Positions 1,405-37,898 of a stretch of DNA of 64,000 nucleotides are shown here, piece after piece. Below the pieces are notes generated by a model. The model was given only the letters and a program-made list of their open reading frames with translations. It had not been told where the DNA came from and did no database searches. A program made the position numbers and the translations under genes. Within the stretch, counting starts at the first letter, position 1; the number at the start of each line of letters is the position of its first letter. The DNA is from Corallococcus sp. EGB (lineage in GTDB: Bacteria > Myxococcota > Myxococcia > Myxococcales > Myxococcaceae). Where the stretch lies: positions 806,001-870,000 of the forward strand of contig NZ_CP079946.1 in the NCBI RefSeq assembly GCF_019968905.1, read 5' to 3'.

Positions 1405-4400
1405 ATGACAGGTGGCATCCAGCGCCGGCGATGGGTGGCCGGAGGGGTCGGCTTGTTGCTTCTGGGGGGAGGCCTGGCCTTCATGGCTTCCGGGCGGTGT
1501 CTGTCCGCCTGGGTGTTCCAGGGCGTGGAGACGCCGGAGTGTCCGGACGGGGAGTTCCGCCAGACGGTGAGCGTGTCCGCCAACGGCCTCGCGCGCGGCG
1601 CCTCCAGCCGGGTGAATGTCTGGGCGCTGGCGCACGGCGTGGACGACAAGGGCCGAGCGTTCCAGGCCCCCGTCATCCGGGGCTCCGCGGCGCTGTTCCT
1701 GGTGGACGCGGCCGGCAAGGAGACACCGCTGCCGCTGGACGCAGACGGCCATTGGGAGCGCGGCGAAACGGGGGCCCTCGCGGCGCCGGTGTCGCTGCCG
1801 CAGGTGCCGGACGGCGACTACCAGCTGCGCGCGCGCGTCACCACGCCGCTGGGCGCCGGAGCGGTGGAGGCACCCTTGCCACTGTACGCGCCCGCGCGGG
1901 TGCGCGTGCTCACCGACCGGCCCCTCTACGAGCCCGGGCACCGGGTGCGCTTCCGCGCGGTGGCGCTGCGCGCGAAGGACCTGTCGCCGCTCGATGGGCG
2001 GCCGGGGACGTGGAAGGTGACGGACCCCTCCGGTGAGGTGGTGCTGGAGGAGCGCGCGCCCGCGGGCAGCTGGGGCGTGGTGGCGGGGGACTTCCCGCTG
2101 GACCGGGGCGCGCTCACGGGCACGTGGACGGTGTCGTGGAACAGTGGTGGCGCCTCTGGCGTCGCGCGCTTCACGGTGGAGCCCTTCACGCTGCCGCGCT
2201 TGCGGTTGGAGGCGAAGAGCTCGCGGCCCTTCTGGCGCGCCAACGACACGCCGGAGGTGACGGGACAGGTGTCGTACGCGTCCGGCGCGCCGGTGGCGGA
2301 CACGGAGGTGACGCTGACGTGGAGCCACGCGGGTGGATGGCCTCCGCCGACGGAGTGGCTGCGGGGCGAGCTGCCGGCGAAGGCGCGCACGGACGCCGCC
2401 GGCCGCTTCCGCGTGACGCTGCCGCGCGTGCCCCAGGACCTGCGCGGACAGGCCACGCTGAGCGCGAGCGTGGAGGCGAAGGACCCCACGGGTGAGCCGG
2501 TGCGCGGCGCCGTGTCGCTCCTGTTGTCCGAGGACGCGCTGGCCGTGTCCTCCGTGACGGAGCTGGAGGACGGGCTGGTGGCGGGCTTCAGCAACCGCGT
2601 CTACCTGCGCGCCACCACCGCCTCCGGGCAGGTGTTGCCGGGCGCGGAGGTGACGGTGACGCGCGCGTGGGATCCGCGAGACAGGGGCGTGAGCGCGGTG
2701 GCGGACGAGGACGGCGTGGCCGCCTTCCAGTTGGATCCAGGCCCCGCGGTGAACGTGGTGGTGCCGCCCTTGCCGGTGCGCGTGCCGCCGCGTCCTCCGC
2801 CCGTGTCGTTGCTGTCGTCCCGGGACCTGCTGGGCACGCAGGCGGGACAGTCGTCACTGGAGGATCAATTGGCGCTGGAGCGGCTGCTGCCCGCGCTGCA
2901 TCCTTGCGCGCGCTTCGTCTCCGTCTCCGGGAGTGGCTCCACGGCGGAGTTCGCCGTGCGGGTGGGCGCGTCCGGGCAGGTGCTGGACGTGGCGGGAGCG
3001 GACGAGGGCTTGGAGGCGTGCGTGGCGTCGGCGCTGCGCGCGAAGGGCCTGCCCCCGGGCGCGGAGCGGATGCTCCAGCTGAGCTTCCGGGTCCAGGACC
3101 CGGGCCTGCCGTCGCTGCGGTGGAGCACGGCGACCGCGCAGGGAGATGACCGGGGCGTGAGCGAGGGGCTGGCCGTCGCCGCGCTGGATGCGCGCGCGTG
3201 CCTGCCGCCCGCGTTGGACCGCGTCGTGGCCGTGCCCGCCGCGCTGACGTGGCGGCGGTGGGCGGACAGGCCGGAGCTGGCGGTGTCGTGGCTGCCGGAG
3301 CCCACGGGTGAGGGCGCGCTGCCCGCGGCGGCGCTGGCCTGCGTGAAGGAGCGCTTCGCCCGCATCCGCATCCCGGCCCAGACCCCGTCGGACGTCCAGG
3401 CGGGACGGCGGCCGCCGGAGGCCATGGGCGTGGTGCGCTTCATCGCGCAGCCCACGTATGGCGGAAACGGCATCCCCCATCCGCCCCAGCCCACCACGTT
3501 CCTGGGCTACGAGCTGAAGGTCCAGGCGAGGTGGGACGGCCGGGACATGGGGGAGACGAAGCTCGTGCTGCGCTCGGCGAGCCTGCCGCCGCTGCGCCTG
3601 CGCGCGACGCCGGTCCTGGCGAAGGCGGGCGAGCCCGTGAAGGTGGAGCTGCTTCGCGGCCCTGGCTTCACGGGCGAGGTGCCCGCGACCCTGGAGCTGG
3701 TGGCGGGACAGACGCGGCTCAAGGAGAAGGTGGATCCGGCCACGCGCTCGGCGCGCTTCACGCTGCCCCAGGACTTCGAGGGTTGGGCGCAGGTGGAGAG
3801 CATGGCGGCGACCGCGCGCGTGTACGTGGCGCCTCGCGCGTCGCTGTCGGTGGAGGTGTCGCCGGACAAGCCCGCGTACGCGCCCGGGGAGCTGGCGCAC
3901 CTCCAGGTCCACACGCGCGTGGACGGGAAGGACGGGGAAGCGGCGGTCGGCCTCTTCGGCGTGGACGAGACGCTGTCCCAGCTGGCGCCGCTGCCGGGCG
4001 CGGACGCGCTGGACGGGCTGCGGCCCTCGCCGTCGGTGGCCATGCCGGCCTTTGGCGTGCTGGACGGCCAGGCGCTGGCCATGGGGCGGATCCGGGGCGC
4101 GAACGCGGCCGCGGCGGCGCTCCTGCGCGTGACGGCGGTGCCCACGTTGGAGGACGTGGAGACGCCCATGACGGCGAGCGCCACGAGCCCCTTCTCCCCG
4201 GACGCGGAGCTCACGGAGCCCTTCTACGCGGTGCTGACGGAGCTGCACGCGCGCACGCGCAAGTGGGAGGAGAGCGCGCCCGAGGGTGAGACGCTGGACC
4301 CCGCGGGGCTCGCCCGGCTGTGGTCGGAGTCACTGGCCGCGTGCGAGCAGCGCGGGCAGAAGGTGACGGATGCGTTCGGCCGCAAGCTGCGGCTGTCGCG

Positions 4401-8215: not shown

Positions 8216-10594
8216 ATGAGCCTTCCCGCTCGACGTCTCATGGCCGCGAAGGTCCTGCTCTGCACGGGCGTGACGCTGGCGTGGGCCGTCCTCTGCCTGC
8301 TGCCCATGCTCGCGGACGCGGCGCCGCGCTTCGGCCTCGCGGGCCTGTCCTCCAACAACGAGGTGCGCCTGCGCACGTCCACCGCCCATCTGGAGACGGT
8401 GCTGCGTGTGGACCTGCTGGCGCCGGTGACGGACGCGTCTCCGGAGGCACCGCGCGACGCGGGCACGGAGGCCGCGCGGGTGACGGTGCTGGTGGATCCG
8501 CTGCTCGCGGCGGACGGCACGCAGGTGCCGGTGACGGTGCGCGTGGGCACGGCGGAGGGCGCGGCGGAGCTGCCCATCTCCGTGCGGCAGCCGGTGACGG
8601 TGACGCTGTCCGCGGACCTGCCCGCCGCCGGTGACTACCACGGCCGCGTGGTGCTGCTGGGCGACGGCACGCGGGAGGTCACCCCGCTCCTCGTGCAGCG
8701 CGTGGCGTCCGCGCCCACGGTGCAGTTCTATCCGGTGGCCCCCGCGCGCGGCTGGACGCTGGGGCCGTTCTCCGGAAGAGCCACGGTGCGGCTCACCTTC
8801 CGGGAGACCTCGGGCGTGGGCGGCGCCGTGGGCCCCGCGTCGGTGGTGCAGCTGGACCGCAAGGCGGGCGGCGGGGACGGCGCGGCGCCCGTGCAGGCGC
8901 AGGACGCGAAGTGGCTCTTCCGGGGGCCGGACGGCCTGCCGCAGGGCCCGGGGAAGGAGGGCGTCCTCCAGGTGCCCGCCTACGGCACCGGCCTCTTGAG
9001 CGTGGACGTGGACGACCTGCCGGAGTCCGGTGAGTACACCGGCACGGTGCGGCTGCTCGTGCCGGAGGGCGCGGCGGTGGAGCAGGCGTTCACCGTCTGG
9101 GTGAAGACGCCCGCGATGTTCGGCGCGTTCCTCATCTTCCTGGGCGTGGTGACGTCCGCGGCGGTGCGCTTCTACGTGCAGCGCGTGCGCCCTCGCGTGA
9201 ACCTGCGCGACCGCGCGGAGGCCGCGCGCCAGAAGCTCCAATCGCTGGTGCCCGCCCGTCCGCTGGAGCAGGAGGCCACCGTGGCCGCGTCGCTGCGCCG
9301 CCAGGTGGACGCGCTCCTCGCGAACATCCAGCGCCCCTTGAGCGGGCTCGTCGTGCAGGACTCCGTGCTCGCGCTCTTCGAGGCGCGGCTCCAGCTCTTC
9401 TCCCTCTGGTCCGTCCTGCTGCGGCAGCTGGAGGGGCTCAAGGGCGTGGCGCTGCTGGACGCGGAGCGCAAGCTCAAGGCGGTGGAGACGCTGCTCCAGA
9501 ATGATCAGGCCACGTCCGCGGACTTCACCGAGCAGGCGCAGATGCTGCGCACGCTCGACCTGGAGTCGGTGGCCCGCGCGGTGCTGGAGGCGCGGCTGAC
9601 GGAGCTGGAGCAGCAGGCGCGGACGCTGGCCTCCCAGCGCGGGGATGATCCGGTGAGCCGCAGGCTCCAGGGGGAGCTGCCCCTGTACGTGCTGCGCGCG
9701 CGCCAGCAGCTGCCGGGGCCCGACCTGGAGGCGTCGCACCGGCTGGTGGAGACCGCGCGCGAGGCGTTCCTCGAAATCCTCGTGGCGGACCTGGAGGGCG
9801 CCCTCACCGTGAAGCAGCTGCCCGGCGGCTTCACGCAGGAGGAGTGGGCGGCGCTGCGCCTGCGCGTGGGCGAGCAGCTGGCCCGGGCGCGGGCCCGCGT
9901 GCACGCCAGCGTGGACGAGGCGTACCTCTACTACCAGGCCGCGTACGCGCTGTACCTGCGCGAGCTGGTGGACAACCTGGAGGAGGCGCTGACGCAGCTC
10001 CAGGCGCAGTCCGGCGGCGGGCTGAACACGAGCGCGGACTGGCGGACGGAGGTGGAAGCGCGGTTGGCGGCGGCGCGCGCGCTCCTGGACAAGGGCGAGG
10101 CGAACCTGGCCGCGCCGGAGTACCGCGCCGCCCGCGAGGACTTCGCGCGCCACGTCACGGCCCCGCCCCCCGCGGTCGCCCTGGGCGGCCGGAGCGGCCT
10201 GGAGCGCGTCCCCGCCGAAGTGTCGCTGGACCCCTTCTCGCAGCCGGCCCCGGGCGCGCCCCCGCCGCCCGCGCCGCTGCCCGGAGGGCCCGCCAGCGGG
10301 AACCTCTCCCCCCTGCCGCCGCCGTCCACCAAGGCGAGCACCGACGCGCTGGTGAACCTGGACTGGATTCCCCTGCCGCGCTCGCGCGACCTGTGGAAGG
10401 TGGAGCTCGCGGTGCTGGGGATGATGTCCATCATCGCCGTGCTGCTGGGGCTCCAGGTGCTGGACGTCTTCGCGCCCACGTGGGGCGGCTCCGGCGCGTG
10501 GATGACCGCCTTCCTCTGGGGCTTCGGCCTGCACCAGGTGGGCAACGCCACGTTCGACGGGCTGTGGGGCATGGTGTCGCGGCTGGAGAAGTAG
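8216..10594 (+). CDS. Large membrane protein with Ig-like ectodomain and helical cytoplasmic region
   Basis: 792 aa from MSLPARRLMA, whose start gives a clean N-terminal signal/anchor (about residues 10-35). Next comes a beta-rich extracytoplasmic part (about 40-295), a transmembrane helix at about 299-321 (FGAFLIFLGVVTSAAVRFYV), then about 340 residues of Arg/Glu/Leu-rich helix likely to be coiled coil. A Pro-rich linker (about 675-715) and two C-terminal hydrophobic segments (about 729-785) follow. I know no named family. It follows the EAD1-protease by 80 bp on the same strand, so a membrane partner or sensor role is possible but unproven. Its stop is 3 bp from the stop of the convergent SDR. 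Confidence 0.7.
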   Translation: MSLPARRLMAAKVLLCTGVTLAWAVLCLLPMLADAAPRFGLAGLSSNNEVRLRTSTAHLETVLRVDLLAPVTDASPEAPRDAGTEAARVTVLVDPLLAADGTQVPVTVRVGTAEGAAELPISVRQPVTVTLSADLPAAGDYHGRVVLLGDGTREVTPLLVQRVASAPTVQFYPVAPARGWTLGPFSGRATVRLTFRETSGVGGAVGPASVVQLDRKAGGGDGAAPVQAQDAKWLFRGPDGLPQGPGKEGVLQVPAYGTGLLSVDVDDLPESGEYTGTVRLLVPEGAAVEQAFTVWVKTPAMFGAFLIFLGVVTSAAVRFYVQRVRPRVNLRDRAEAARQKLQSLVPARPLEQEATVAASLRRQVDALLANIQRPLSGLVVQDSVLALFEARLQLFSLWSVLLRQLEGLKGVALLDAERKLKAVETLLQNDQATSADFTEQAQMLRTLDLESVARAVLEARLTELEQQARTLASQRGDDPVSRRLQGELPLYVLRARQQLPGPDLEASHRLVETAREAFLEILVADLEGALTVKQLPGGFTQEEWAALRLRVGEQLARARARVHASVDEAYLYYQAAYALYLRELVDNLEEALTQLQAQSGGGLNTSADWRTEVEARLAAARALLDKGEANLAAPEYRAAREDFARHVTAPPPAVALGGRSGLERVPAEVSLDPFSQPAPGAPPPPAPLPGGPASGNLSPLPPPSTKASTDALVNLDWIPLPRSRDLWKVELAVLGMMSIIAVLLGLQVLDVFAPTWGGSGAWMTAFLWGFGLHQVGNATFDGLWGMVSRLEK

Positions 10595-10597
10595 CCT

Positions 10598-11398
10598 TCA
10601 GGCCTTCCGGCCGCGGATGGCGCGCGCGGCCAGCCGGTCCACCAGCGACGGCGCCACCAGCTTGAGCACCTGTCCCACGCGGCCGGTGAGCGTCATCACC
10701 AGCTCGCGCTCGCGGCGCTCCATGGCGCGCAGGATGAGCGCCACACAGGTGTCCACGTCCATGGTGGGGCCGGACTCGTCGCGGGGGCTCTGGCCCAGGG
10801 GCTGGCCCTCCGGCCCCAGCGCGTGCGCGCGGATGTCCGTGGCCACGAAGCCCGGCGACACCACGAGCACGTCCGTGCCGGTGCCCAACAGTTCGATGCG
10901 CAGCGAATCGAAGAAGCCCTGCATGGCGTGCTTGCTGCCGGCGTAGCCGGTGCGCATGGGCACGCCCGTCTTGCCCGTCAGCGACGACACGGCGACGAGC
11001 AGTCCCTTGCGCGCCTTGATGTGCGGCAGCGCGTGGAAGGTGCAGTGCACCGCGCCCAGGTAGTTGATGCGGATGAGGCGCTCGTAGAGGCCCAGGTCCT
11101 TCACGTCCTCGAAGCGCGAGTGCATGGTGATGCCCGCGTTGTTGACGAGCACGTCCACGCCGCCGAACGCCTCCACCGTGCGCTCCACCAGCCGGCGGCA
11201 CGCCTCCGGGTCGCCCACGTCGGTGGGCACCGCCAGCGCCTTGCCGCCCGCGGCCTCGCACCGCGCCTTCACGCGCTCCAGCGCCTGGGCATCCCGCGCC
11301 GCCAGCGCCACGTTCGCGCCCCGTCCGGCCAGGGCCACCGACAGCGCCTCGCCGATGCCCGCGGAGGCACCGGTGACAATCACGGTCTTTCCTTGCAT
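10598..11398 (-). CDS. Short-chain dehydrogenase/reductase
   Basis: 266 aa from MQGKTVIVTG. An ATG three codons upstream is possible, but GAGAGG is better spaced for the start given. Classical SDR features are visible: the dinucleotide motif GASAGIG (residues 10-16), NNAG in the middle of the fold, and the active-site YAGSK. It is an NAD(P)H-dependent oxidoreductase with unknown substrate. The family includes lipid and ketone reductases, and the hydrophobic patch after the active site would fit a lipophilic substrate. It lies downstream of the ZIP and hydrolase genes on the same strand and may be the last gene of that group. Confidence 0.85.
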   Translation of the reverse strand: MQGKTVIVTGASAGIGEALSVALAGRGANVALAARDAQALERVKARCEAAGGKALAVPTDVGDPEACRRLVERTVEAFGGVDVLVNNAGITMHSRFEDVKDLGLYERLIRINYLGAVHCTFHALPHIKARKGLLVAVSSLTGKTGVPMRTGYAGSKHAMQGFFDSLRIELLGTGTDVLVVSPGFVATDIRAHALGPEGQPLGQSPRDESGPTMDVDTCVALILRAMERRERELVMTLTGRVGQVLKLVAPSLVDRLAARAIRGRKA

Positions 11399-11427
11399 GC
11401 CGCCCATCCTCTCAGGGGCGCGGCCCT

Positions 11428-12204
11428 TCAGCCATGGCCTCCCGTGAAGGCCTCCGCGAAGTGGAGCCCGCCAATGAGCAGCAGCCCGCAGAGAAAGCCC
11501 ACCAGGCGCTGGCGCGCGTCCGGGCCCCGGCGCATCTCCGGCAGCAGGTCCACCGCGCCGATGTAGAGGAACGAGCCTCCGGCGATGGCCAGCACCGTGC
11601 CCTGGAGCGACGGCAGCATCCGGGTGCCCAGGAGCACCCCCGCCGCGCCAATCGCGGCGGTGAGCTGCACCCCCGCCAGCGCGACGAGCGACCCCCCGCG
11701 AGACCAGCCCGCGGCGCGCAGGAGCGCGTAGTCGCCCACCTCCTGCGGAAGCTCATGGACGATGACGGCGAACGCGGTGGCGATGCCCGCCTGCGGCGAC
11801 ACGAGGAAGGCCGCCGCCACCGCCGCCCCGTCGCCCACGTTGTGCAGCGCGTCCGACGCCAGCAGGGTGACGGGCAGCGTGGGCGTGCCCGGGTGCGCAT
11901 GGTGGCCGTGCGCGTGTCCGGCGGCGGCCTCCGCGTGGTGGGGGTGATGGCCCAGCGCCCACTCCAGGAGCGCCAGCGCGACGAAGCTGGCGAAGGCCCA
12001 CGTGAAGGTCGCCGCGCCCTGGACCTCCACCGCCTGCGGCAGCACCTCCAGGAACACCGCGCTCAACAACGTGCCGGCGGCGAAGGCCACCAGCGCGGGC
12101 AGCCGCTGGTGCAGCCAACGCTCGGAGAGCACACCGCCCGCGAGCCCTGCCAGACCGTCCAGTCCCACGGCGATGAGGACGAACAGGACGGTGTGCGACT
12201 CCAT
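11428..12204 (-). CDS. ZIP-family divalent metal transporter
   Basis: 258 aa from MESHTVLFVL. This start overlaps the upstream hydrolase stop as TGATG, indicating coupled translation. Eight hydrophobic helices are likely. A His-rich cytoplasmic loop (HHPHHAEAAAGHAHGHHAHP) lies between helices III and IV. The two ZIP metal-site helices are present: DALHNVGDG and HELPQEVGDY. In most ZIPs the latter is HExPHExGD, and here the second His is replaced by Gln, which may change metal preference. It imports zinc or a similar divalent ion toward the cytoplasm. Confidence 0.88.
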   Translation of the reverse strand: MESHTVLFVLIAVGLDGLAGLAGGVLSERWLHQRLPALVAFAAGTLLSAVFLEVLPQAVEVQGAATFTWAFASFVALALLEWALGHHPHHAEAAAGHAHGHHAHPGTPTLPVTLLASDALHNVGDGAAVAAAFLVSPQAGIATAFAVIVHELPQEVGDYALLRAAGWSRGGSLVALAGVQLTAAIGAAGVLLGTRMLPSLQGTVLAIAGGSFLYIGAVDLLPEMRRGPDARQRLVGFLCGLLLIGGLHFAEAFTGGHG

Positions 12205-12983
12205 CAGGGGGCCATCAGCCACGCGAGCACGGCCTGGGGGCTGTCCACGTGCACGAAGTGGCCGGCGTCCGGCAGGAAGGCCACGGGGCAGCCGCCGTCC
12301 TCCAGGCGCCGGGCGCTCTCGTCGGACACGTACCGGCTGCGCCCGCCGCGGATGCAGCGCAGGGGCGGGTGCACGGGGCGCTCCACCGCGGGCCAGAGGT
12401 CCTCGCCGTTGACGCGCCGGTGCAGGCGTTGGAGCGCTTCGCGGTCGAAGCGCCAGCGCACGCCGTCACCGTCCGGCGCCAGGTTCATGAGCAGCCAGTC
12501 CGACAGCGACTCCGACAGGCCATTGCCGGTGAGGCTCGCGCGCAGCTCCTTGCGGCTGTCCGCGCGCGGCGGGGCCTTCAGGAGGATGTCCAGCACATAG
12601 CCGCTCTCCGACAGGTCCAGCGGCACGGGGCCCGGCGCGATGTCGAGCAGCGCCACGCTGCGCACGTGCTCGGAGGCCTCCAGGCTGGCGGCGAGCGACA
12701 CGCGTCCCCCCAGCGAGTGGCCCACCCAGTCCACGGGGCCCTGGAAGCCCTTCGCTTCGAGCGTGTCCACCACGTCGCGCGCGAGCGTGGCCAGGTCCGC
12801 GTCCGGGGACAGGGCCGGGGAGGTGCCGTGGCCGGTGAGGTCGGGCAGCAGGATGCGGCGGCGCGGATCCGCCTGCGTCCACGCGACGGCGAGCGAGCGC
12901 AGGTTGCGGCCCGTCCCGAGGAAGCCGTGCAGCATCACCGTGAGCACGTCGCCCGTGCCCACCTGGAAACTTTCGAGCACCAC
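12204..12983 (-). CDS. Alpha/beta hydrolase (esterase-like)
   Basis: 259 aa, cytoplasmic, with no signal peptide. It has an HGFLGTG oxyanion-hole region near residue 20, the nucleophile elbow GHSLGG with Ser90, and a late His in DAGHFVHVDSPQAV. The size and the LPDLTGHGTS stretch match small esterases and MenH/YbfF-type hydrolases. The real substrate cannot be read from the sequence. It is the first gene of a run with the ZIP transporter (1-bp overlap of stop and start) and perhaps the SDR. Confidence 0.85.
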   Translation of the reverse strand: MVLESFQVGTGDVLTVMLHGFLGTGRNLRSLAVAWTQADPRRRILLPDLTGHGTSPALSPDADLATLARDVVDTLEAKGFQGPVDWVGHSLGGRVSLAASLEASEHVRSVALLDIAPGPVPLDLSESGYVLDILLKAPPRADSRKELRASLTGNGLSESLSDWLLMNLAPDGDGVRWRFDREALQRLHRRVNGEDLWPAVERPVHPPLRCIRGGRSRYVSDESARRLEDGGCPVAFLPDAGHFVHVDSPQAVLAWLMAP

Positions 12984-13071
12984 GCCACCACCACCTTGTG
13001 TCGCATGCCTTGACCTGGGGGCACGCCTGCCGCTTCATACCGCGAAGCCCCCTTTCGTCGAGGTGAACCCG

Positions 13072-13647
13072 ATGGCATCCGTCTCCTGGTTGTTGCTGGC
13101 GCTCGGCGCCAACCCCGTCGCTGCTCCGGCCGCGGCCCAGGCTCCGGCAGACCCGAAGGTCGCGGTGGCCACGGTGCTGGACGACTGGCACCGCGCGGCC
13201 GCGGTGGCGAACGAGGCGCGCTACTTCGCGTACTTCACCCCGGACGCGGTCTTCATGGGCACGGACGGGGAGGAGCGCTGGACGGTGGACCAGTTCCGCG
13301 CGTGGGCGAAGCCCTACTTCACCAAGGGGCAGGCCTGGTCGTTCAAGTCGGTGTCCCGCAACGTGTTCTTCTCCAAGGACGGCCAGCTGGCCTGGTTCGA
13401 CGAGTCGTTGGATACGCCCAACCTGGGCCCCGCGCGCGGCAGCGGCGTGCTGGTGAAGGACGCGTCCGGCTGGAAGATCGCCCAGTACAACCTCTCCGTC
13501 CCCATCCCCAACGACTTGATGGGCGAGGTGACGAACCGCATCGCCACGTACTCCAAGGCCAAGGTGGCCACACCGTCCGCGCCAGCACAGAAGCCTGCCC
13601 AGGCGCCCACCCCGCCGCCCGCGAAGGCGTCCGCGAAGAAGCCCTGA
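13072..13647 (+). CDS. Secreted NTF2-like (SnoaL/DUF4440-type) protein
   Basis: 191 aa from the ATG preceded by GAGGTGA. The in-frame region upstream of it belongs to the antisense hydrolase. Residues 1-22 are a signal peptide ending in an Ala-rich cleavage region. Residues about 30-155 match the NTF2-like alpha+beta cone: a first helix with WHRAAAVANEARYFAYFTPD, then FMGTDGEERW and an internal KDGQLAWFDE. Such secreted NTF2-like domains are often ligand-binding and non-enzymatic. The last 35 residues are an Ala/Pro/Lys-rich tail that may contact the envelope. Confidence 0.8.
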   Translation: MASVSWLLLALGANPVAAPAAAQAPADPKVAVATVLDDWHRAAAVANEARYFAYFTPDAVFMGTDGEERWTVDQFRAWAKPYFTKGQAWSFKSVSRNVFFSKDGQLAWFDESLDTPNLGPARGSGVLVKDASGWKIAQYNLSVPIPNDLMGEVTNRIATYSKAKVATPSAPAQKPAQAPTPPPAKASAKKP

Positions 13648-13780
13648 CGCTTGCCTGCCTGCGTCATGGCCCGGCTCCATGACAGAACCATGACAAACGC
13701 ATGGCGGAGCTGAGGCCCTCCGTGACGTCCTACGCTGTAGGTTGGCGTCCTTCGCTGCTCTGTACTGGAGGCCCCAACGC

Positions 13781-14182
13781 ATGCGTGTCATCACCCCCGA
13801 CCTTCTTGTCGCGGCCGTGACGGAACTCTCCCGGGGATCGAAGCTGGTCCGACTGAAGGACGTTCTGGCGTGGTGTGAGTGGAACGGGGTGGATGCCCAG
13901 GGAGATGGCCTCCGGAACCAGGCGCTGTGGGAAGCGGAGCGCGCCGAGGTCCGGGGGCAGCACCGGCTGCTGAAGTTCAAGAGCGGCGAGTGCAAGCAGT
14001 CCCGGCTGGGGTGGGCGCTCATCGCCCATGGAGCCAAGGCGCGGGAGCTGGCGACGGACCTGCGCTGGTGTGAACAGGTGTGGAATGGCGTGGACTGGGA
14101 GTGGCAGGGCGGCATCGCGCCCGTCCCCGAGCGCCGCCCCAACCGCGTCCGGAATGTGGAAGAGGCGCCCGCCTCCCCGTGA
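13781..14182 (+). CDS. Small hypothetical protein
   Basis: 133 aa from MRVITPDLLV, with GGAGG about 9 bases upstream. I do not recognise it. It is compact, Trp-rich (WCEWNGVD, WCEQVWNGVDWEW) and without signal peptide. The repeated W-NGVD phrase near both ends suggests a small internal duplication. It lies 54 bp upstream of the SET gene on the same strand and could be cotranscribed with it. Confidence 0.65.
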   Translation: MRVITPDLLVAAVTELSRGSKLVRLKDVLAWCEWNGVDAQGDGLRNQALWEAERAEVRGQHRLLKFKSGECKQSRLGWALIAHGAKARELATDLRWCEQVWNGVDWEWQGGIAPVPERRPNRVRNVEEAPASP

Positions 14183-14236
14183 GCCCGGGACGTGCTTAAG
14201 TTCGGGCAGGCACCCTCCCGCGAGGAGGGTTTCTCC

Positions 14237-14647
14237 ATGAACAATCCCGAACTCGAGCGCCTCATCTCAGAGAATCAGTTCCACCCCAACGTTGAATGGC
14301 GCCTCGTTCCTGGAAAGGGACGGGGCGTTTTCGCGCGCCGGTTCCTGCCGAAGGGCACGCTCGTGGAGTGGGCGCCCATCAGCCGCTTCCCCGCGAGCGA
14401 CCTCAAGCCGGTGGACCACCGCGACTGCCAGGCGCAACACCATGTCTTCACCTGGGGCTCCGAGCCTGGCCGGGAGAAGGCATACGCGTGGGGCATGCTG
14501 GCGCTCTACAACCACTCGAAGACGCCCAACGTGGAGCTCATCGACGGGCCGGTGCCGGACACGGGCGCGGCCGTCGCGCTGCGCGACATCCAGCCCGGCG
14601 AGGAGCTCTGCCTGGACTACGGCATCACCTGGTTCGAGACGCACTGA
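14237..14647 (+). CDS. Small SET-domain protein (putative lysine methyltransferase)
   Basis: 136 aa from MNNPELERLI, preceded by GGAGGG. It is essentially a minimal SET domain: GKGRGVFARR near residue 25 (cofactor loop), LALYNHSKTPNVEL as the NHS-type core, and GEELCLDYGITW with the catalytic-type Tyr. It should bind S-adenosylmethionine, and the target is unknown. There are no pre- or post-SET cysteines. The last 52 bases of the gene are repeated exactly at 19117-19168, after the Hxs cassette, so this gene's 3' end was the site of the rearrangement that placed the cassette here. Confidence 0.85.
   Translation: MNNPELERLISENQFHPNVEWRLVPGKGRGVFARRFLPKGTLVEWAPISRFPASDLKPVDHRDCQAQHHVFTWGSEPGREKAYAWGMLALYNHSKTPNVELIDGPVPDTGAAVALRDIQPGEELCLDYGITWFETH
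14596..14647 (+). repeat. 52-bp direct repeat, left copy (SET gene 3' end)
   Basis: Bases 14596-14647 encode the last residues of the SET protein (GEELCLDYGITWFETH) and its stop. They are identical over all 52 positions to 19117-19168. Similarity continues weakly outside: GC one base before and GCGC one base after. The two copies have the same orientation and exactly bracket the Hxs genes. Such repeats arise by site-specific integration into a gene's 3' end or by homologous rearrangement. Confidence 0.95.
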
Positions 14648-14677
14648 AGCGCTGATGTGAGCGGCGAGGCGAACCCC

Positions 14678-14701
14678 GCCCGCGGCGGTGCTGCCGCGGG
14701 C
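14678..14701 (+). terminator. Hairpin downstream of the SET gene
   Basis: A perfect 9-bp stem GCCCGCGGC/GCCGCGGGC with a 6-nt loop starts 30 bp after the SET stop and about 110 bp before the first Hxs-locus gene. It probably ends SET transcription, so the Hxs operon would need its own promoter between here and 14812. Confidence 0.55.
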
Positions 14702-14811
14702 AGCCAGGGATACTTCGCTCCAGGGCATGGCCTCACCTCGTGGAGGGATGTTCACCGGATATCGGTTCCGGCAACATTCCCTCTCATGCAAGGTGGGGTG
14801 CGGAAGTGACC

Positions 14812-15543
14812 ATGGACAGACGGTGCGGTTCCTGGGCCAGGCGCTGTCGCCGGAGCGGGATGACCCTCCTGGTGGCAGGGAGTCTGTTCTTCGTGGGGGC
14901 TGTGTCATGGGGCGCCGGGCCCGACCGCTGGAAGGCGGCTCGCGACGAGCAGGGGTCCGCCGAAAAACAGCGCGCTGAAGCCCGTCAGGCATTGATGCAT
15001 GCGCTGACGCCTCCTGTCCGCGCGGGAGGGTCCACCCAGGTCTGGCTTCAGCGCGTGGACGAAGTCCTCGCCCGTGCCGAGGAGGCCGGCAAGGTCTCCG
15101 GGGATGCGGAGCTGACGGCGCGAGCAGCCGAGGCGGCCACCTGGGCGCGGGAGGAGCGCCGGAAGATTCCCCTGATAGGGGCCGAGCGCGCAGTGGTCCT
15201 CCAGTTGCTCCACCTCTCCGCGGAGCCCTCCGCGCGGATCATCACCTGGGAGCGGGACTCCGTGGTGCTCCACTGCGCGATGGAGGCCGAGCGCTGCGTG
15301 GGGGTCTATCTGGTGGGCCGGGCCCGCGAGGGCCGCGTGCTCAATGCCCCCGAGCAGGCGGAGCAGACCGCGGCGCTGCTGACACAGGCCCTCGGGCAGC
15401 CCGCGCAGCTCCCCGCGCCGCCCGCGAGGGAAGGGGGCAGGGTGCCCACGACGTCGAGCTGGAAGGCGGGAGAGGTCCCCGTTGTCGCCCGGTGGAGGAG
15501 TTCGGACTTGATGGAGCTGCGCGTGGGGAGCGTGAAGCCATGA
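14812..15543 (+). CDS. Secreted protein of unknown function, first gene of the Hxs operon
   Basis: 243 aa from MDRRCGSWAR. An internal start at MTLLVAGSLF is also possible. A positively charged N-terminus and a hydrophobic run (TLLVAGSLFFVGAVSWGAG) make an export signal. The mature part is helical and Glu/Ala-rich, then mixed, with two Cys (HCAMEAERCVG) about eight residues apart. No family is recognised. Its stop overlaps the HxsA-like start by ATGA, so the two exported proteins are translationally coupled. A role in display, protection or processing of the modified HxsA product is only an inference from this coupling. Confidence 0.7.
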   Translation: MDRRCGSWARRCRRSGMTLLVAGSLFFVGAVSWGAGPDRWKAARDEQGSAEKQRAEARQALMHALTPPVRAGGSTQVWLQRVDEVLARAEEAGKVSGDAELTARAAEAATWAREERRKIPLIGAERAVVLQLLHLSAEPSARIITWERDSVVLHCAMEAERCVGVYLVGRAREGRVLNAPEQAEQTAALLTQALGQPAQLPAPPAREGGRVPTTSSWKAGEVPVVARWRSSDLMELRVGSVKP

Positions 15544-16142
15544 CCACGAAATCGCCGGGCCTGCTGTCTGTCAGTTCCGCGCTGCTCGCGTTGATCAGCG
15601 GCGCCGCGCCCTCGGGGCTCCTCGCCCCTCGCGCGGAGACCTCCCATGACCCGCTTCGGCGGCGTGAGGAGGAGGACTCCCATCACGAGCTCCTCCTGGT
15701 GGAGCCTTCCGAGGGAGCCCCGGTCCTGCTCGCGGGGCATCGTTCGCACCGCTCCCATTCCTCACACCGCAGCCACTACTCCGGAAGCGGTGGGGGGTCC
15801 CGCAGCTACATTCCCAGCTACGAGCCTCCGGCTCCCACCCGGGCCCCAGCTCCCAGCGCTCCGTCCACGTCCTCCACCTCGTCCCCTTCGCCCAGCAGCG
15901 AGGCGAAGAAGACGACCGAGCCGCCGCCTCGCGCGCCCAAGCCGGCTCGCGTCTCCTTCGTGGCGTTCCCGGGCGGCCGGATCTTCGTGGACGACAAGGC
16001 GGCGGGGCAGGACGTGACGGCCCCCATGGAGTTGTCCGCGGGGACGCACTCCGTGCGCGTGGAGAACCGCTTCGTCGGGCGGATCACGATCGACGTCGAA
16101 CTGCTCGAAGGGCAGACCGGAGAGGTGAAGCTTGAGTGGTAG
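15540..16142 (+). CDS. hxsA: HxsA-like His-Xaa-Ser repeat precursor with PEGA-like C-terminal domain
   Basis: 200 aa from MTTKSPGLLS, overlapping the preceding stop. The N-terminus has a weak signal-like hydrophobic stretch (about 6-30). Residues 67-81 read HRSHRSHSSHRSHYS, five consecutive His-Xaa-Ser units, followed by a Gly/Ser stretch and SYIPSYEPP. This is the hallmark of HxsA proteins, the presumed substrate of the radical SAM enzymes encoded just downstream. A Pro/Ser/Thr-rich linker (about 90-135) leads to a beta-rich domain (about 137-199; FPGGRIFVDDKAAG, then ELSAGTHSVRVE) that looks like PEGA, a small surface or envelope domain. In known Hxs precursors the repeat is the main feature, so the PEGA-like tail appears unusual. 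Confidence 0.8.
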   Translation: MTTKSPGLLSVSSALLALISGAAPSGLLAPRAETSHDPLRRREEEDSHHELLLVEPSEGAPVLLAGHRSHRSHSSHRSHYSGSGGGSRSYIPSYEPPAPTRAPAPSAPSTSSTSSPSPSSEAKKTTEPPPRAPKPARVSFVAFPGGRIFVDDKAAGQDVTAPMELSAGTHSVRVENRFVGRITIDVELLEGQTGEVKLEW

Positions 16143-16491
16143 TGCCATGGCTTCGCCGTCCGTGGAGGAGGCCCTGCGCTTCCAGGACGGGCGTATCCCG
16201 CTCACGCTCGACCTGCGCGTCTACCGCCTCACCGCCGTGCAGAAGGCCAGCTACCGCTTCGCGGAGCACTTCACGGTCCTCCTGGGAGCTCCGGAGGAAC
16301 ACCGCCTCTCGGTCACCTGCCTCTTCCGGCCAGACACCCGAGAACCGGAGGCGCTCGATGCCGTCCGTCGCTATTTCCAGGAGCTGTTGGACCAGGAACT
16401 GCGCGAGCAGATTGGAGAGGAGACCCGGGCGGTTCGCGCGTTGATCCTCGCCCAGGCCTTCTCGCGGACCAACCTCATCCGGCGGGACTGA
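16132..16491 (+). CDS. hxsD: His-Xaa-Ser system protein HxsD
   Basis: 119 aa if translated from the TTG at 16132, which has GAGG six bases upstream and overlaps hxsA by 11 bp. The alternative is the ATG at 16147 (114 aa). It is a small soluble protein whose start of fold, LTLDLRVYRLTAVQKASYRF, matches the HxsD pattern (Leu-rich strand, then a helix with KAxYRF). HxsD is a constant companion of HxsB and HxsC, and its role, perhaps precursor recognition, is not established. It lies between the precursor and HxsB genes. Confidence 0.8.
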   Translation: MSGSAMASPSVEEALRFQDGRIPLTLDLRVYRLTAVQKASYRFAEHFTVLLGAPEEHRLSVTCLFRPDTREPEALDAVRRYFQELLDQELREQIGEETRAVRALILAQAFSRTNLIRRD

Positions 16492-16502
16492 GGGACGCCC
16501 CC

Positions 16503-17945
16503 ATGTTCCAGGAACGCACGGCCTTCGAGCCCGACCGGGACTACCGGCTCGCACCCCTCCGGTTCAGCCCGTTGGATGGCAGCCGGTACGTGGTGACCAA
16601 CGACGTGGGCGAGCACGTGGTGCTCTCGCGCGAACACCTGGTCGCCTTCATCCAGCGCACGCTGTCGCCGGACTCGGCTGCCTACAAGGCGCTCAAGTCC
16701 CGGCACTTCATGTTCGACCGCCAGTCCCGCGTGGCGTTGGACCTGCTGGCGCTCAAGTACCGGACCCGGGCCGAACAGCTCGCGGCCTTCACCGGGCTGC
16801 ACATCTTCGTGGTCACCCTGCGGTGCGACCATTCCTGCCAGTACTGCCAGGTGTCGAGGCAGGTGGAGGACCGCACCCGGTTCGACATGACGCCCGAGCA
16901 CGCGGAGCAGGCCCTGGCGCTGGTCTTCCAGAGTCCGTCACCCGCGCTCAAGATTGAATTCCAGGGAGGAGAGCCGCTGCTCAACTTCGGGCTCATTCGC
17001 CACGTCGTCGAACGTGCCCTGGAGCTGAACAGGACCCACGGCCGCGACCTCCAGTTCGTCATCGCGACGAACCTGTCCCGGCTGTCGGACGAGGTCCTCG
17101 CGTTCTGCCGGCAGCACGGCATCTTCCTCTCCACGTCACTCGACGGGCCGGCGTCCCTGCACAACGCCCAGCGTCCGGTGCGCGGAGGAGACAGCCATCA
17201 GCGGACCGTGGATGGCATCCGGCGCGCGCGAGAGGTCTTGGGCGAGCACGCGGTCTCCGCGCTCATGACCACCACCCGGACCAGCCTGGACAGGGTGGAG
17301 GACATCATCGACGAGTACGTGCGCCTTGGCTTCCACTCCATCTTCCTGCGCAACCTGAGTCCATATGGCTTCGCGGTCCGGCGCAAGGGTGGCCAGGACT
17401 ATGACGTCGACCGGTGGATCGCCTTCTACACGCGCGGGCTCGCGCACATCCTGAAGCTCAACGCCCGGGGATATCCGCTGCGCGAGGAGTTCACCACCAT
17501 CCTCCTCCAGAAGCTCTTCTCCCCGAGGGGCTCGAGCTACGTCGACCTCCAGTCGCCCGCGGGCCTGGGCATTGGAGCCCTGGTCTACAACTACGACGGT
17601 CACGTCTACGCGTCCGACGAGGGACGCATGCTGGCGGAGATGGGCGACTTCTCCTTCCGGCTGGGCCATGTCGCGCGGGACGGCCACGCGGCCCTCCTGG
17701 CGTCGGAGACGCTGCTGTCCCACTTGAGTGACACCATGCCGGAGGGCGTCCCCATGTGCAGCGACTGCGCGTTCCTCCCGCTATGCGGAGCGGATCCCGT
17801 CTTCCACCGCGCGACGCAGGGGGACGCCGTGGGCCATAAGGCCTTCAGCGCCTTCTGCAAGAAACAGATGGCGGTCCTCCGGCACCTCATCACGTTGCTG
17901 GAGGATGATCCGCCTGCCCGCGAAACCCTGCTGGGATGGTTGTGA
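16503..17945 (+). CDS. hxsB: Radical SAM maturase HxsB
   Basis: 480 aa, the usual HxsB length. The radical SAM cluster motif CxxxCxxC is C108, C112, C115 (LRCDHSCQYCQVSRQ), followed by EFQGGEPLLNF for SAM binding. The C-terminus carries a SPASM/twitch-like Cys set (MCSDCAFLPLCGADP, then FCKK) for auxiliary iron-sulfur clusters, typical of enzymes that modify ribosomally made peptides. It is expected to act on the His-Xaa-Ser repeat of the upstream precursor together with HxsC. The chemistry is not known. The gene is 11 bp after hxsD and 3 bp before hxsC, so it is a tight operon. Confidence 0.88.
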   Translation: MFQERTAFEPDRDYRLAPLRFSPLDGSRYVVTNDVGEHVVLSREHLVAFIQRTLSPDSAAYKALKSRHFMFDRQSRVALDLLALKYRTRAEQLAAFTGLHIFVVTLRCDHSCQYCQVSRQVEDRTRFDMTPEHAEQALALVFQSPSPALKIEFQGGEPLLNFGLIRHVVERALELNRTHGRDLQFVIATNLSRLSDEVLAFCRQHGIFLSTSLDGPASLHNAQRPVRGGDSHQRTVDGIRRAREVLGEHAVSALMTTTRTSLDRVEDIIDEYVRLGFHSIFLRNLSPYGFAVRRKGGQDYDVDRWIAFYTRGLAHILKLNARGYPLREEFTTILLQKLFSPRGSSYVDLQSPAGLGIGALVYNYDGHVYASDEGRMLAEMGDFSFRLGHVARDGHAALLASETLLSHLSDTMPEGVPMCSDCAFLPLCGADPVFHRATQGDAVGHKAFSAFCKKQMAVLRHLITLLEDDPPARETLLGWL

Positions 17946-17948
17946 ATC

Positions 17949-19106
17949 ATGACCCCGGCTCTTTCCACGGTGGGGCTGCGGCCCCTGTCCCGCGCCTCCT
18001 CTCATCCGTTCCTGGGGCGCCTCCGAGAGGGCACCGCATCCACGCCAGTCGCGGGGGTGCCTGAAATCCTCCTCGTCCGTGAGCCCCAGGGCGCGCTGCC
18101 GTCAGGCTTTCGCGCATACCTGCTGGAGGAGCCGGTTCCGGACGTGAGCGTCCCGGATGCCTATGTGCTGCCCTCCGGCTTTCTTCCGCTCGCGGAAGGA
18201 GACGTCGTGCGGGTGGAGCCCTCCAGCGGACGGTTGAGCGCGCTCTACCGGAGGGCCTCCCTTTCCAACAGCCTGCTGGTCACCGAGCGCTGCGACAACT
18301 ACTGCCTGATGTGCTCGCAGCCTCCGCGCAAGCACGATGACTCCTGGCTGCTGGACGAGCTTCTGGAGCTCATCCCGCTCATCTCCCCGGAGACTCGAGA
18401 ACTGGGCATCACTGGCGGAGAACCCGCGCTGCTGGGCGAGGGGCTGCTACGGCTCGTGGAGCAGTTGAAGACGCACTTGCCGGGAACGGCGGTGCACATG
18501 CTCTCCAATGGGCGGCGTTTCTCGGAGGAGGTCTTCGCCCGGGGCCTGGGGACGCTGAAGCATCCGGACTTGATGGTGGGCATCCCGCTGTACTCCGACC
18601 TGCCGGAGGCGCATGACCATGTCGTGCAGGCGCGGGGCGCCTACGATGAGACCCTGCGGGGCATCCTGAACCTGAAGCGGGCGGGCATCCGGGTGGAGCT
18701 CCGGGTCGTCATCCATGCCCTCACCCACGAGCGCCTCCCGGACCTGGCGCGCTTCATCGCCCGGAACCTGCTCTTCGTGGACCATGTCGCGCTGATGGGG
18801 CTGGAGCTGATGGGCTTCGCGAAGACGAACCTTCCGAAGCTCTGGGTGGATCCGCTCGATTACCAGGAGCCCCTCCGCGCGGCGGTGCGGACCCTGGACC
18901 GGGCGGGCATCAACACCTCCATCTACAACCATCCGCTCTGCGTGCTCCCCGCGGACCTCCATCCCTTCGCGCGCAAGAGCATCTCCGACTGGAAGAACGT
19001 CTACTTCCGGGAGTGCGAAGGCTGCGCCTTGAAAGAGGCCTGTGGCGGGTTCTTCGCTTCTTCGACGCTGAAGCGCAGCCGGGGGATCGCGGCCGCGCGT
19101 CCGTGA
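17949..19106 (+). CDS. hxsC: Radical SAM maturase HxsC
   Basis: 385 aa. The CxxxCxxC motif is C115, C119, C122 (ERCDNYCLMCSQPPR), with GITGGEPALLG next. The C-terminal CEGCALKEACGGFFAS supplies further cysteines. The long N-terminal region (about 110 residues before the radical SAM barrel) and the SQPPRKHDD stretch fit HxsC rather than a generic SPASM enzyme. It presumably works with HxsB on the His-Xaa-Ser precursor. The stop is only 10 bp before the second copy of the 52-bp repeat, so the inserted block ends almost exactly with this gene. Confidence 0.88.
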   Translation: MTPALSTVGLRPLSRASSHPFLGRLREGTASTPVAGVPEILLVREPQGALPSGFRAYLLEEPVPDVSVPDAYVLPSGFLPLAEGDVVRVEPSSGRLSALYRRASLSNSLLVTERCDNYCLMCSQPPRKHDDSWLLDELLELIPLISPETRELGITGGEPALLGEGLLRLVEQLKTHLPGTAVHMLSNGRRFSEEVFARGLGTLKHPDLMVGIPLYSDLPEAHDHVVQARGAYDETLRGILNLKRAGIRVELRVVIHALTHERLPDLARFIARNLLFVDHVALMGLELMGFAKTNLPKLWVDPLDYQEPLRAAVRTLDRAGINTSIYNHPLCVLPADLHPFARKSISDWKNVYFRECEGCALKEACGGFFASSTLKRSRGIAAARP

Positions 19107-19116
19107 CGCGCCTGCG

Positions 19117-19168
19117 CGGCGAGGAGCTCTGCCTGGACTACGGCATCACCTGGTTCGAGACGCACTGA
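19117..19168 (+). repeat. 52-bp direct repeat, right copy (SET 3' remnant)
   Basis: An exact copy of 14596-14647. Here it has no open SET gene in front of it, so it is a remnant or attachment-site-like copy, not a functional 3' end. It lies between the hxsC stop and the end of the convergent lipase-like gene. Confidence 0.95.
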
Positions 19169-19192: not shown

Positions 19193-20287
19193 TCAGACCG
19201 CGTCCTGGATGTGCTCCAGGTACGTGTTGATGCCGTGCTTGCCATCCACGCCGAACACCTCGCCGTTTCCGGCGGAGTCGAAGGTGTGGAGGGTGGCGCC
19301 TGCCGGGTACTGGATGGACGGGCCGCCGTTGAGGATCCCGATGCCCGGAAAGATGCCGGACACGATGCCGCTGACGATGTCCGTCACCGGGTTGAACCCA
19401 TGCGTGCCCAGCCACGTGGGCACGGGGTCCTGGTTGTTGACGTAGAACGTGTACTTGGGCCCGTCCGGGAACGTCTTGCCCGCGCCCGCGAAGGTCGTGA
19501 CGTGGATGTTCCCGAGCAGCGCCTCGCGCTTGTCGCGGTTGCCGTCACCGAGGATGGGCAGGTTGCCCCAGAAGCCGCCCATGTCGTTCTTGATGCGGTG
19601 ATCCACCTCGCGCAGCGCCGTCGCCACGATGGCGCCGCCCTGGCTGTAGCCGGTGACGTTGACCTTCCTGCCGGCCTTCAGGTCGCTGTAGATGGCATCC
19701 GCCAGCGTCTGGGCCGCCTTGTTGTCGCCGAGTCCCAGCCGGTCCAGGCCCGTCTGCGTCACGTCCGCGGCCAGCCCCTCCGTGGCGTTGTAGATGGGCA
19801 CCACGTTGGTGCCCGTCTCGTTCGCCAGCTTCTGGGCCTGGCCCGTGGCGTCTCCGTCGCCCTGCGTCTGCGTGACGATGCCGTTGACGTGGTACGTCGT
19901 CGGCGTCGGGGAGGCGATGGGCTTCTCCGGCTTGAACGGCGGTATCTCCGAGATGGAGAACCTGCCCGGCGGATACGCGTAGCCGTCCGCGCCCAGGAAC
20001 ATGCCGTCGTACGTCTTCGGATCCGCGTTCGCGTCGAGCTTCAGCGCGCCGCGCGCCACCTTCGTCGCGTCATCCAGCACCACCGTGCCTGCCTGCACCG
20101 TGCCCGTCGTGTTGGACTGGACGGGCGGGAGGCTGGTGGAGGACTGCGCGCGCTTCGCCTCGAAGACGTCCTTCGACGCCGGCGGACGGGCGACCGTGTT
20201 CTTCGCCGCCACGGGCCCGGTCTGTCCCTCCAGGGGGCGAGGCGCCACCTTCCGGACTCCGCCTTGACCCACACCGTCGATGGACAT
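19193..20287 (-). CDS. Lipase-like alpha/beta hydrolase with disordered N-terminus
   Basis: 364 aa. Residues 1-70 are Pro/Thr/Ala-rich and probably disordered. From about residue 125 a hydrolase-like fold appears: TYHVNGIVTQTQGDGDATG, a helix with QTLADAIYSDLKAG, then the nucleophile elbow TGYSQGGAIV. Later strands include NIHVTTFAGAGKTF and YVNNQDPVPTW, a plausible acid residue. A candidate His near the C-terminus is HGINTYLEHIQ. There is no signal peptide. The TxSQGGxI elbow resembles intracellular lipases and PE-PPE-type hydrolases, so secretion or effector use is possible but not shown. Confidence 0.7.
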   Translation of the reverse strand: MSIDGVGQGGVRKVAPRPLEGQTGPVAAKNTVARPPASKDVFEAKRAQSSTSLPPVQSNTTGTVQAGTVVLDDATKVARGALKLDANADPKTYDGMFLGADGYAYPPGRFSISEIPPFKPEKPIASPTPTTYHVNGIVTQTQGDGDATGQAQKLANETGTNVVPIYNATEGLAADVTQTGLDRLGLGDNKAAQTLADAIYSDLKAGRKVNVTGYSQGGAIVATALREVDHRIKNDMGGFWGNLPILGDGNRDKREALLGNIHVTTFAGAGKTFPDGPKYTFYVNNQDPVPTWLGTHGFNPVTDIVSGIVSGIFPGIGILNGGPSIQYPAGATLHTFDSAGNGEVFGVDGKHGINTYLEHIQDAV

Positions 20288-37732: not shown

Positions 37733-37898
37733 CGTCCTGTTCGGGGTGAGCTGCCTGGCCATGATGCACATGGCATGAATCCACCTCGTCCTAGCCCACA
37801 GCATCCGTCAGCCAGGGCCACGGTCTCCGGACCTGATTTCTGCTGCCATGAGAAGGTGAGAGCCCCCGTGGGGACACCCCGGCGGCGGCGAACTCCAG

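What the first reader, a model, noticed from the sequence alone, without database searches (positions are those of the whole stretch)
14596..19168. Complete Hxs radical-SAM cassette bracketed by a perfect 52-bp direct repeat of a SET gene's 3' end
Bases 14596-14647 and 19117-19168 are identical over 52 bp. The left copy ends at the SET stop codon, and the right copy begins 10 bp after the hxsC stop. Between them are only the secreted protein, hxsA, hxsD, hxsB and hxsC. This is the footprint of a discrete module that entered at a protein-coding 3' end while restoring the gene, like integration into tRNA 3' ends, although no recombinase lies inside. It would make Hxs a mobile RiPP-like module with a defined attachment point.
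Basis: partly seen in the sequence, partly recalled or inferred. Interest (0 to 1): 0.85.

Follow-up and report, generated by a model that had tools for sequence, protein, structure and literature searches.

The report
Recombination scar beside a Hxs cassette
A peptide-modifying gene cassette in a Corallococcus genome sits between two copies of a neighbouring gene's end, but comparison with relatives suggests that the second copy is a scar of a later DNA exchange and not a docking site the cassette used to enter.

Summary
The 52-bp perfect direct repeat is real (14596-14647 = 19117-19168) and brackets secreted protein-hxsA-D-B-C. The predicted empty site exists: in 3 of 16 Corallococcus genomes one SET gene is followed 10-16 bp later by the downstream gene's stop, so the cassette is an accessory unit in a variable slot. 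But the repeat is probably not the entry footprint. A second species (G019, C. exercitus) carries the cassette at the same slot with three more genes after hxsC and no right-hand SET copy. The hxsC-trio order recurs in G038, as a remnant in G037, and as a fragment (hxsC end-trio-P0007 end) in a third genus (G005). The window's structure then looks derived: trio lost, SET 3' end gained. Best explanation: one-sided (homology-facilitated illegitimate) recombination between a filled and an empty allele. Weak points: outgroup G026 lacks the trio, and exact microhomology at the joint is 3 bp. No recombinase among the proteins scanned; no such repeat at the G019 or G026 Hxs loci. Parallel: Bartonella Hxs loci lie between ~290-bp copies of an aldo/keto-reductase 3' end, so a recurrent gene-end-anchored route is not excluded.

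The parts
13742..14182 (+). conserved gene of unknown function at the left border of the variable slot (u13742)
   Evidence: aligned in 8 of 8 relatives; not matched in the fetched P0007 regions of G023, G025, G027, G030; no Pfam or NCBIfam match at E<=0.001
14237..14647 (+). SET-domain gene, intact
   Evidence: PF00856, E 1.7e-13; orthologues at 94-97% in 6 other Corallococcus genomes
14596..14647 (+). left repeat copy: last 52 bp of SET including the stop codon
14812..15543 (+). secreted protein (signal-peptide-like N terminus by eye), first gene of the Hxs cassette
   Evidence: homologous sequence upstream of hxsA in G019, G026, G037, G038
15540..16142 (+). hxsA-like His-Xaa-Ser repeat protein
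   Evidence: TIGR03979 53.5 bits, below the curated cut-off of 121.65
16132..16491 (+). hxsD
   Evidence: TIGR03976 73.4 bits, cut-off 50
16503..17945 (+). hxsB, radical SAM maturase
   Evidence: TIGR03978 596 bits, cut-off 370
17949..19106 (+). hxsC, radical SAM maturase
   Evidence: TIGR03977 409 bits, cut-off 267.9
19107..19119 (+). novel joint: sequence after hxsC that aligns imperfectly with both the G019 hxsC-trio intergene and the SET gene
19117..19168 (+). right repeat copy: remnant of the SET 3' end, contiguous with empty-site-like downstream sequence
19193..20287 (-). downstream gene P0007, unknown function, right border of the slot
   Evidence: orthologues (84-86% protein identity) beside SET in G016-G018; no Pfam or NCBIfam match at E<=0.001

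Best explanation
The Hxs cassette is an accessory unit in a variable intergenic slot between the SET gene and gene P0007. The earlier filled allele was SET | secreted protein-hxsA-D-B-C | HTH-kinase-small-protein trio | P0007, as in C. exercitus today (the allele is shown; its priority is inferred). In the window's lineage a recombination between such a filled allele and an empty SET-P0007 allele used ordinary homology on one side and an illegitimate, microhomology-guided join on the other: sequence just after hxsC was joined to a point 52 bp before the SET stop of the empty allele (inferred). One event removed the trio and left 52 bp of SET 3' end to the right of hxsC. The repeat is thus a recombination scar, not an att site, and no dedicated recombinase is needed. 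Which parent was the recipient is not decided.
For: Empty alleles in G016, G017, G018; the right copy has empty-site geometry (24 bp from the SET stop to the P0007 stop, against 10-16 bp). G019 is filled at the same slot, with the trio and without a right copy. The trio also follows hxsC in G038 (11 bp after the stop, 15 bp in G019), with an HTH-gene remnant in G037. hxsB+hxsC tree: (G000,G019) and (G037,G038) form one clade at 100/99. G005, another genus, holds a block from an hxsC 3' remnant through the trio into a P0007 3' remnant, and G025 keeps a small-protein remnant beside P0007, so hxsC-trio-P0007 is an old order. At the joint, G019's post-hxsC sequence and SET share an exact in-register 10-mer; only 4 positions of the 20-kb G019 region reach such a run: the joint, G019's own SET and two others. 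Both window copies carry the same 3' end, from which 6 relatives differ at 3-6 of 52 bases.
Against: G026, the next branch of the tree, lacks the trio, so by counting steps alone two separate trio gains cost no more than one gain and a loss in G000; only the shared join position and the G005 block favour one gain. At the 10-mer the window itself differs from both G019 and SET at three positions, leaving 3 bp of exact microhomology. Synonymous divergence G000-G019 is higher in the cassette (0.29-0.48) than in the flanks (0.09-0.24), so the two cassettes may have been imported separately, perhaps one without the trio. Identity of the copies could come from gene conversion, as the Bartonella repeat suggests. 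No second strain of this species was available.
Confidence: 0.62

Rival explanations
1. Site-specific integration: a recombinase supplied in trans inserted a circular Hxs element at the SET 3' end, and the 52 bp are attL/attR.
For: The repeat ends on the stop codon, the gene is restored, empty sites exist; the insert begins right after the SET stop in G019 too. The Bartonella parallel has the same outline.
Against: No recombinase among the proteins scanned; G019's insertion has no right repeat; in the 12 other Hxs loci of the family with flanks compared (L125, L128, L132-L141) the longest flank-to-flank direct repeats are 49 bp at 78% and 39 bp at 85%.
Confidence: 0.12
2. The original insertion did duplicate the SET 3' end; G000 then lost the trio by a deletion ending inside the right copy, and G019 lost the right copy.
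For: Keeps the repeat as an entry footprint and fits the gene orders seen.
Against: Needs two deletions plus gene conversion to keep 52/52 identity, where the G000/G019 intergene at 14648-14811 is only 62% alike; no right copy beside the trio or its remnant in G019, G025 or G005.
Confidence: 0.14
3. Intrachromosomal template switching copied 52 bp of SET to the right of hxsC, replacing the trio.
For: Short, perfect copy; similarity at the left joint.
Against: Two illegitimate joints are needed, and the right one would have to fall where the empty-site sequence continues.
Confidence: 0.1

Closest known systems
Hxs (His-Xaa-Ser) radical-SAM system, NCBIfam TIGR03976/03977/03978/03979
   Same: HxsB, HxsC and HxsD pass the curated cut-offs; the A protein has His-Xaa-Ser repeats
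   Different: The A protein scores below its cut-off; an extra secreted protein precedes it
Homology-facilitated illegitimate recombination (HFIR)
   Same: Homology at one end, illegitimate join at the other, resident sequence left beside the incoming module: abstract of PMC3240628, passages of PMC5361080 on Vibrio cholerae T6SS immunity-gene arrays
   Different: Inferred here from comparison only; DNA uptake in this strain was not tested
Genomic islands integrated at gene 3' ends by tyrosine recombinases (recalled; only titles and abstract starts were seen)
   Same: Module flanked by a direct repeat of a gene's 3' end; empty sites in relatives
   Different: No recombinase among the proteins scanned, no repeat in the sister insertion, no shared attachment sequence at the other Hxs loci scanned
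Hxs genes in a Pseudomonas aeruginosa variable region (GI-I), passages of PMC8446631
   Same: hxsA-D lie in a region present in some strains and missing in others
   Different: There the list also holds integrating-conjugative-element genes; here none were seen

Membership tests
Hxs system | HxsB and HxsC radical-SAM maturases | tested here: met
   TIGR03978 and TIGR03977 above cut-off
Hxs system | HxsD | tested here: met
   TIGR03976 73.4 bits, cut-off 50
Hxs system | HxsA substrate with His-Xaa-Ser repeats | tested here: inconclusive
   repeats visible; TIGR03979 53.5 bits, below cut-off 121.65
Hxs system | chemical modification of HxsA | not testable with these tools
   needs mass spectrometry
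site-specifically integrated island | recombinase in or beside the element | tested here: not met
   8 proteins from u13742 to P0007 scanned against NCBIfam and Pfam, none a recombinase; genes further out were not scanned
site-specifically integrated island | same repeat at both ends in a sister insertion | tested here: not met
   G019 has one copy only
site-specifically integrated island | shared attachment sequence at other insertions of the module | tested here: not met
   in 27 fetched regions (13 with Hxs) and the window, the 52-mer with up to 14 substitutions is found only in SET genes and the window's right copy; of 41 named loci only L149 (G019's contig) holds a SET relative
site-specifically integrated island | empty site in relatives | tested here: met
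   G016, G017, G018
HFIR product | contiguous empty-allele sequence on one side of the new joint | tested here: met
   the right copy runs without a break into empty-site-like sequence
HFIR product | microhomology at the illegitimate joint | tested here: inconclusive
   10 bp exact between G019 and SET, but 3 bp exact in the window itself
HFIR product | sequence lost or displaced at the joint | tested here: inconclusive
   trio absent in G000, present after hxsC in G019 and G038; but also absent in the outgroup G026
HFIR product | uptake of homologous DNA by the organism | not testable with these tools
   experiment needed

The most novel reading that the evidence does not exclude
Hxs cassettes spread by a recurrent, recombinase-free route anchored on the 3' ends of neighbouring protein-coding genes: Corallococcus (52-bp SET end) and, independently, two related Bartonella genomes (about 290 bp of aldo/keto-reductase end plus intergene; repeat spacing 4.48-4.56 kb against 4.52 kb here) carry the cassette between duplicated gene ends, which would also let it excise and re-enter by homologous recombination.
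Probability: 0.15. Interest if true: 0.7.

Novelty: new member of a known kind. Interest (0 to 1): 0.4.

Why it matters
It shows how an apparent attachment-site footprint can be a secondary recombination scar, and it resolves one case of gain and loss of a radical-SAM peptide-modifying cassette in a variable slot of a myxobacterial genome. The Bartonella parallel makes it testable whether such cassettes can move by gene-end-anchored recombination without a recombinase of their own.

Tried and rejected
Mobile element with a fixed attachment site: not the leading view, because the sister insertion in G019 lacks the right copy and the 52-mer is at none of the other Hxs regions scanned. Old tandem duplication of SET: the right copy starts 52 bp before the stop, and the 30 bp before it agree with SET at only 10 of 30 ungapped positions, though gapped BLAST stretches the match to 88 bp. 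Recent import of the whole locus from a sampled species: a sliding-window comparison with 8 relatives shows flat flanks; an unsampled donor is not excluded.

Enrichment of repeats around Hxs loci: in 64 loci (1.06 Mb; 51 with hxsB) the direct-repeat pairs spaced 2.5-9 kb were those of the window, L157, L158, L161, L182 and L185, all bracketing hxsB, and three matches of one duplicated stretch in L144, which has no hxsB. A pair spaced as in L157 would bracket hxsB by chance in 0.23 of positions, as in L182 in 0.56 and as in L161 in 0.61, and the window was chosen for its repeat, so no enrichment is claimed. A stricter first pass (85% identity, longer word) had listed only the window, L157 and L158. 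Repeats of L182 and L161 were looked at in part: L182's lie between predicted genes; L161's were not resolved.

The PADLOC scan of seven proteins gave generic kinase matches for P0010 and HTH matches for P0011, none for the rest. tRNA genes: none in the 10 loci scanned. Bartonella empty sites could not be searched.

Full report
Observation. The window holds two identical 52-bp stretches, 14596-14647 and 19117-19168. The left one is the end of an intact SET-domain gene (PF00856) up to the last base of its stop codon; the right one starts 10 bp after the hxsC stop. Between them lie a secreted protein, an HxsA-like protein, HxsD, HxsB and HxsC. It is the longest exact direct repeat in the window, and a search of the 9.43-Mb genome lists these two places and no other at E <= 0.001. 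Confirmed, with one caveat: HxsA scores below its family's cut-off.

Empty sites. Of the 16 genomes held for the genus, 7, the window's own included, have a close SET orthologue. In G016, G017 and G018 the SET stop is followed 10, 16 and 16 bp later by the stop of the downstream gene P0007, which lies on the other strand; the right copy in the window has the same layout with 24 bp. G020 and G022 have SET but no close P0007; G029 lacks SET; G028 lacks SET and has other sequence there. G023, G025, G027 and G030 have P0007 without SET beside it; G021, G024 and G026 have neither a close SET nor a close P0007. So this is a variable slot. The genus name comes from named records: G019's contig has the length (60,332) of one of Corallococcus exercitus AB043A, and G026's the length (18,251) of one of Corallococcus sp. 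CA053C; that they are the same records is inferred.

The filled allele of a second species. G019 matches the window in one alignment from 10000 to 19119 and again from 19190 on, but between hxsC and P0007 it has about 1.9 kb more: an HTH regulator on the other strand, a Ser/Thr kinase and a small protein. No copy of the SET 3' end lies to the right. The cassette therefore sits at the same place without the repeat.

Polarity. The trio follows hxsC also in G038, of another genus, and its HTH gene survives as a fragment after hxsC in G037. In the hxsB+hxsC tree of 15 loci, G000+G019 (97/97) and G037+G038 (100/100) form one clade (100/99). If the trio was gained once on that clade's stem, its absence in the window is derived. 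Against this, the next branch, G026, lacks the trio, so counting steps alone does not decide between one gain with a loss and two gains; the similar join (HTH gene ending 11 and 15 bp after the hxsC stop in G038 and G019) speaks for one gain. Two remnants agree with an old hxsC-trio-P0007 order. G005, a third genus without a close HxsB, holds a block of 84.5% identity that begins in the last about 100 bp of hxsC, runs through the trio and ends within the last about 80 bp of P0007. G025 has about 34 codons of the small-protein gene beside P0007. Close relatives of the HTH and small proteins together were found in 5 of 96 family genomes: G005, G006, G019, G038 and G079; G006 and G079 have no HxsB match at E<=0.001.

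The joint. In gapless register, the sequence after hxsC in G019 and the SET sequence share an exact 10-mer at the very place where the window passes from hxsC-like to SET-like sequence. Random 20-mers of the G019 region reach such a run with frequency 2e-4, which comes from four positions: the joint, G019's own SET and two others. Against this, the window differs from both at three positions of the 10-mer, so exact microhomology in the window is 3 bp.

Age of the repeat. The SET 3' ends of six relatives differ from the window's at 3 to 6 of 52 bases, while the window's two copies do not differ. That points to a lineage-specific event, but gene conversion could also keep copies alike: in Bartonella the two copies within a genome are 96.1% and 93.4% alike and copies between genomes 61-64%. 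Synonymous divergence between G000 and G019 is 0.36 and 0.38 for hxsB and hxsC (0.29-0.48 over the five cassette genes) and 0.09-0.24 for the seven flanking genes tested: the cassettes may have been imported separately or may evolve faster. A sliding-window comparison shows no recent import of the flanks from any of eight relatives.

Mechanism. One event would explain loss of the trio, gain of 52 bp of SET and the unbroken empty-site sequence behind it: recombination of a filled and an empty allele with homology on one side and an illegitimate join on the other. This is known as homology-facilitated illegitimate recombination: abstract of PMC3240628; passages of PMC5361080 propose it for displaced immunity genes in Vibrio cholerae and call it rare. 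Shown are the alleles, their distribution and the tree; the recombination and its direction are inferred. Corallococcus has an open pan-genome whose accessory genes are described as most likely acquired horizontally (abstract and passages of PMC6306037).

Other Hxs loci. Of 59 Hxs loci examined for flanking repeats, 11 had flanks under 500 bases; the other 48 include four records held twice, and several have one short flank. Strong direct repeats bracket the cassette in the window, in Bartonella choladocola L157 (288 bp, 96.5%) and in a Bartonella MAG L158 (290 bp, 93.4%); weaker pairs, short or less alike, occur in L161, L182, L185, L175 and some others. In L157 the right copy holds the last 107 bp of an intact aldo/keto-reductase gene plus downstream sequence, and the left copy lies next to cysK (names by eye from the translations). 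I saw no recombinase among the ORFs between them but did not scan them against family libraries. The two Bartonella genomes count as one independent case. I could not test it with empty sites.

Literature. Searches for 'His-Xaa-Ser' with 'radical SAM' (2 papers) and for HxsA/B/C (24 papers, 20 listed) gave two papers on Hxs genes by their listing. One, PMC8446631, lists hxsA-D among genes of a region (GI-I) that some Pseudomonas aeruginosa genomes lack, together with integrating-conjugative-element genes (passages). So Hxs as cargo of a variable, probably mobile region is already in print; a Hxs record on a Cupriavidus plasmid (L189) agrees. The other, PMC9062424, cites Haft and Basu for HxsB/HxsC (passages). 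Neither, in the passages seen, describes repeats of a gene end around Hxs.

Changes made on checking. Confidence in the best explanation was lowered from 0.68 to 0.62 because the outgroup G026 lacks the trio, and two rivals were raised slightly; the novel case was lowered from 0.17 to 0.15 because Hxs genes are also reported with conjugative-element genes.

Verdict. A confirmed repeat, a correct prediction of empty sites, and an interpretation that is only partly right: the cassette is an accessory unit in a variable slot, while the repeat is most likely a recombination scar.

Noticed in passing
L157 7015-7302 and 11574-11857; L158 7020-7309 and 11501-11790: Bartonella Hxs cassettes lie between ~290-bp direct repeats made of an aldo/keto-reductase 3' end and intergene; copies within a genome (96%, 93%) are far more alike than between genomes (61-64%), as in gene conversion.
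   Followed up: partly
L125 14539-16413: Three-gene cassette (HTH regulator, Ser/Thr kinase, 106-aa protein without a Pfam match) found with and without Hxs in four genera of the family; HTH and small protein 80-90% identical.
   Followed up: partly
L203 (G005), reverse complement 1868-3972: Block with an hxsC 3' remnant, the trio and a P0007 3' remnant: apparently a transferred fragment with ends inside two genes.
   Followed up: yes
window 37898-38489: Apparently intergenic array of ~69-bp units carrying a CTGTCCGAC/GTCGGACAG-like motif.
   Followed up: no
L147 8535-8637 (G025): Remnant of the trio's small-protein gene beside P0007.
   Followed up: yes
L182 5814-5900 and 13010-13093; L161 6855-6909 and 14364-14419: Weaker direct repeats around Hxs loci of a Caulobacter MAG and of Cupriavidus alkaliphilus; possibly dispersed repeats.
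   Followed up: partly
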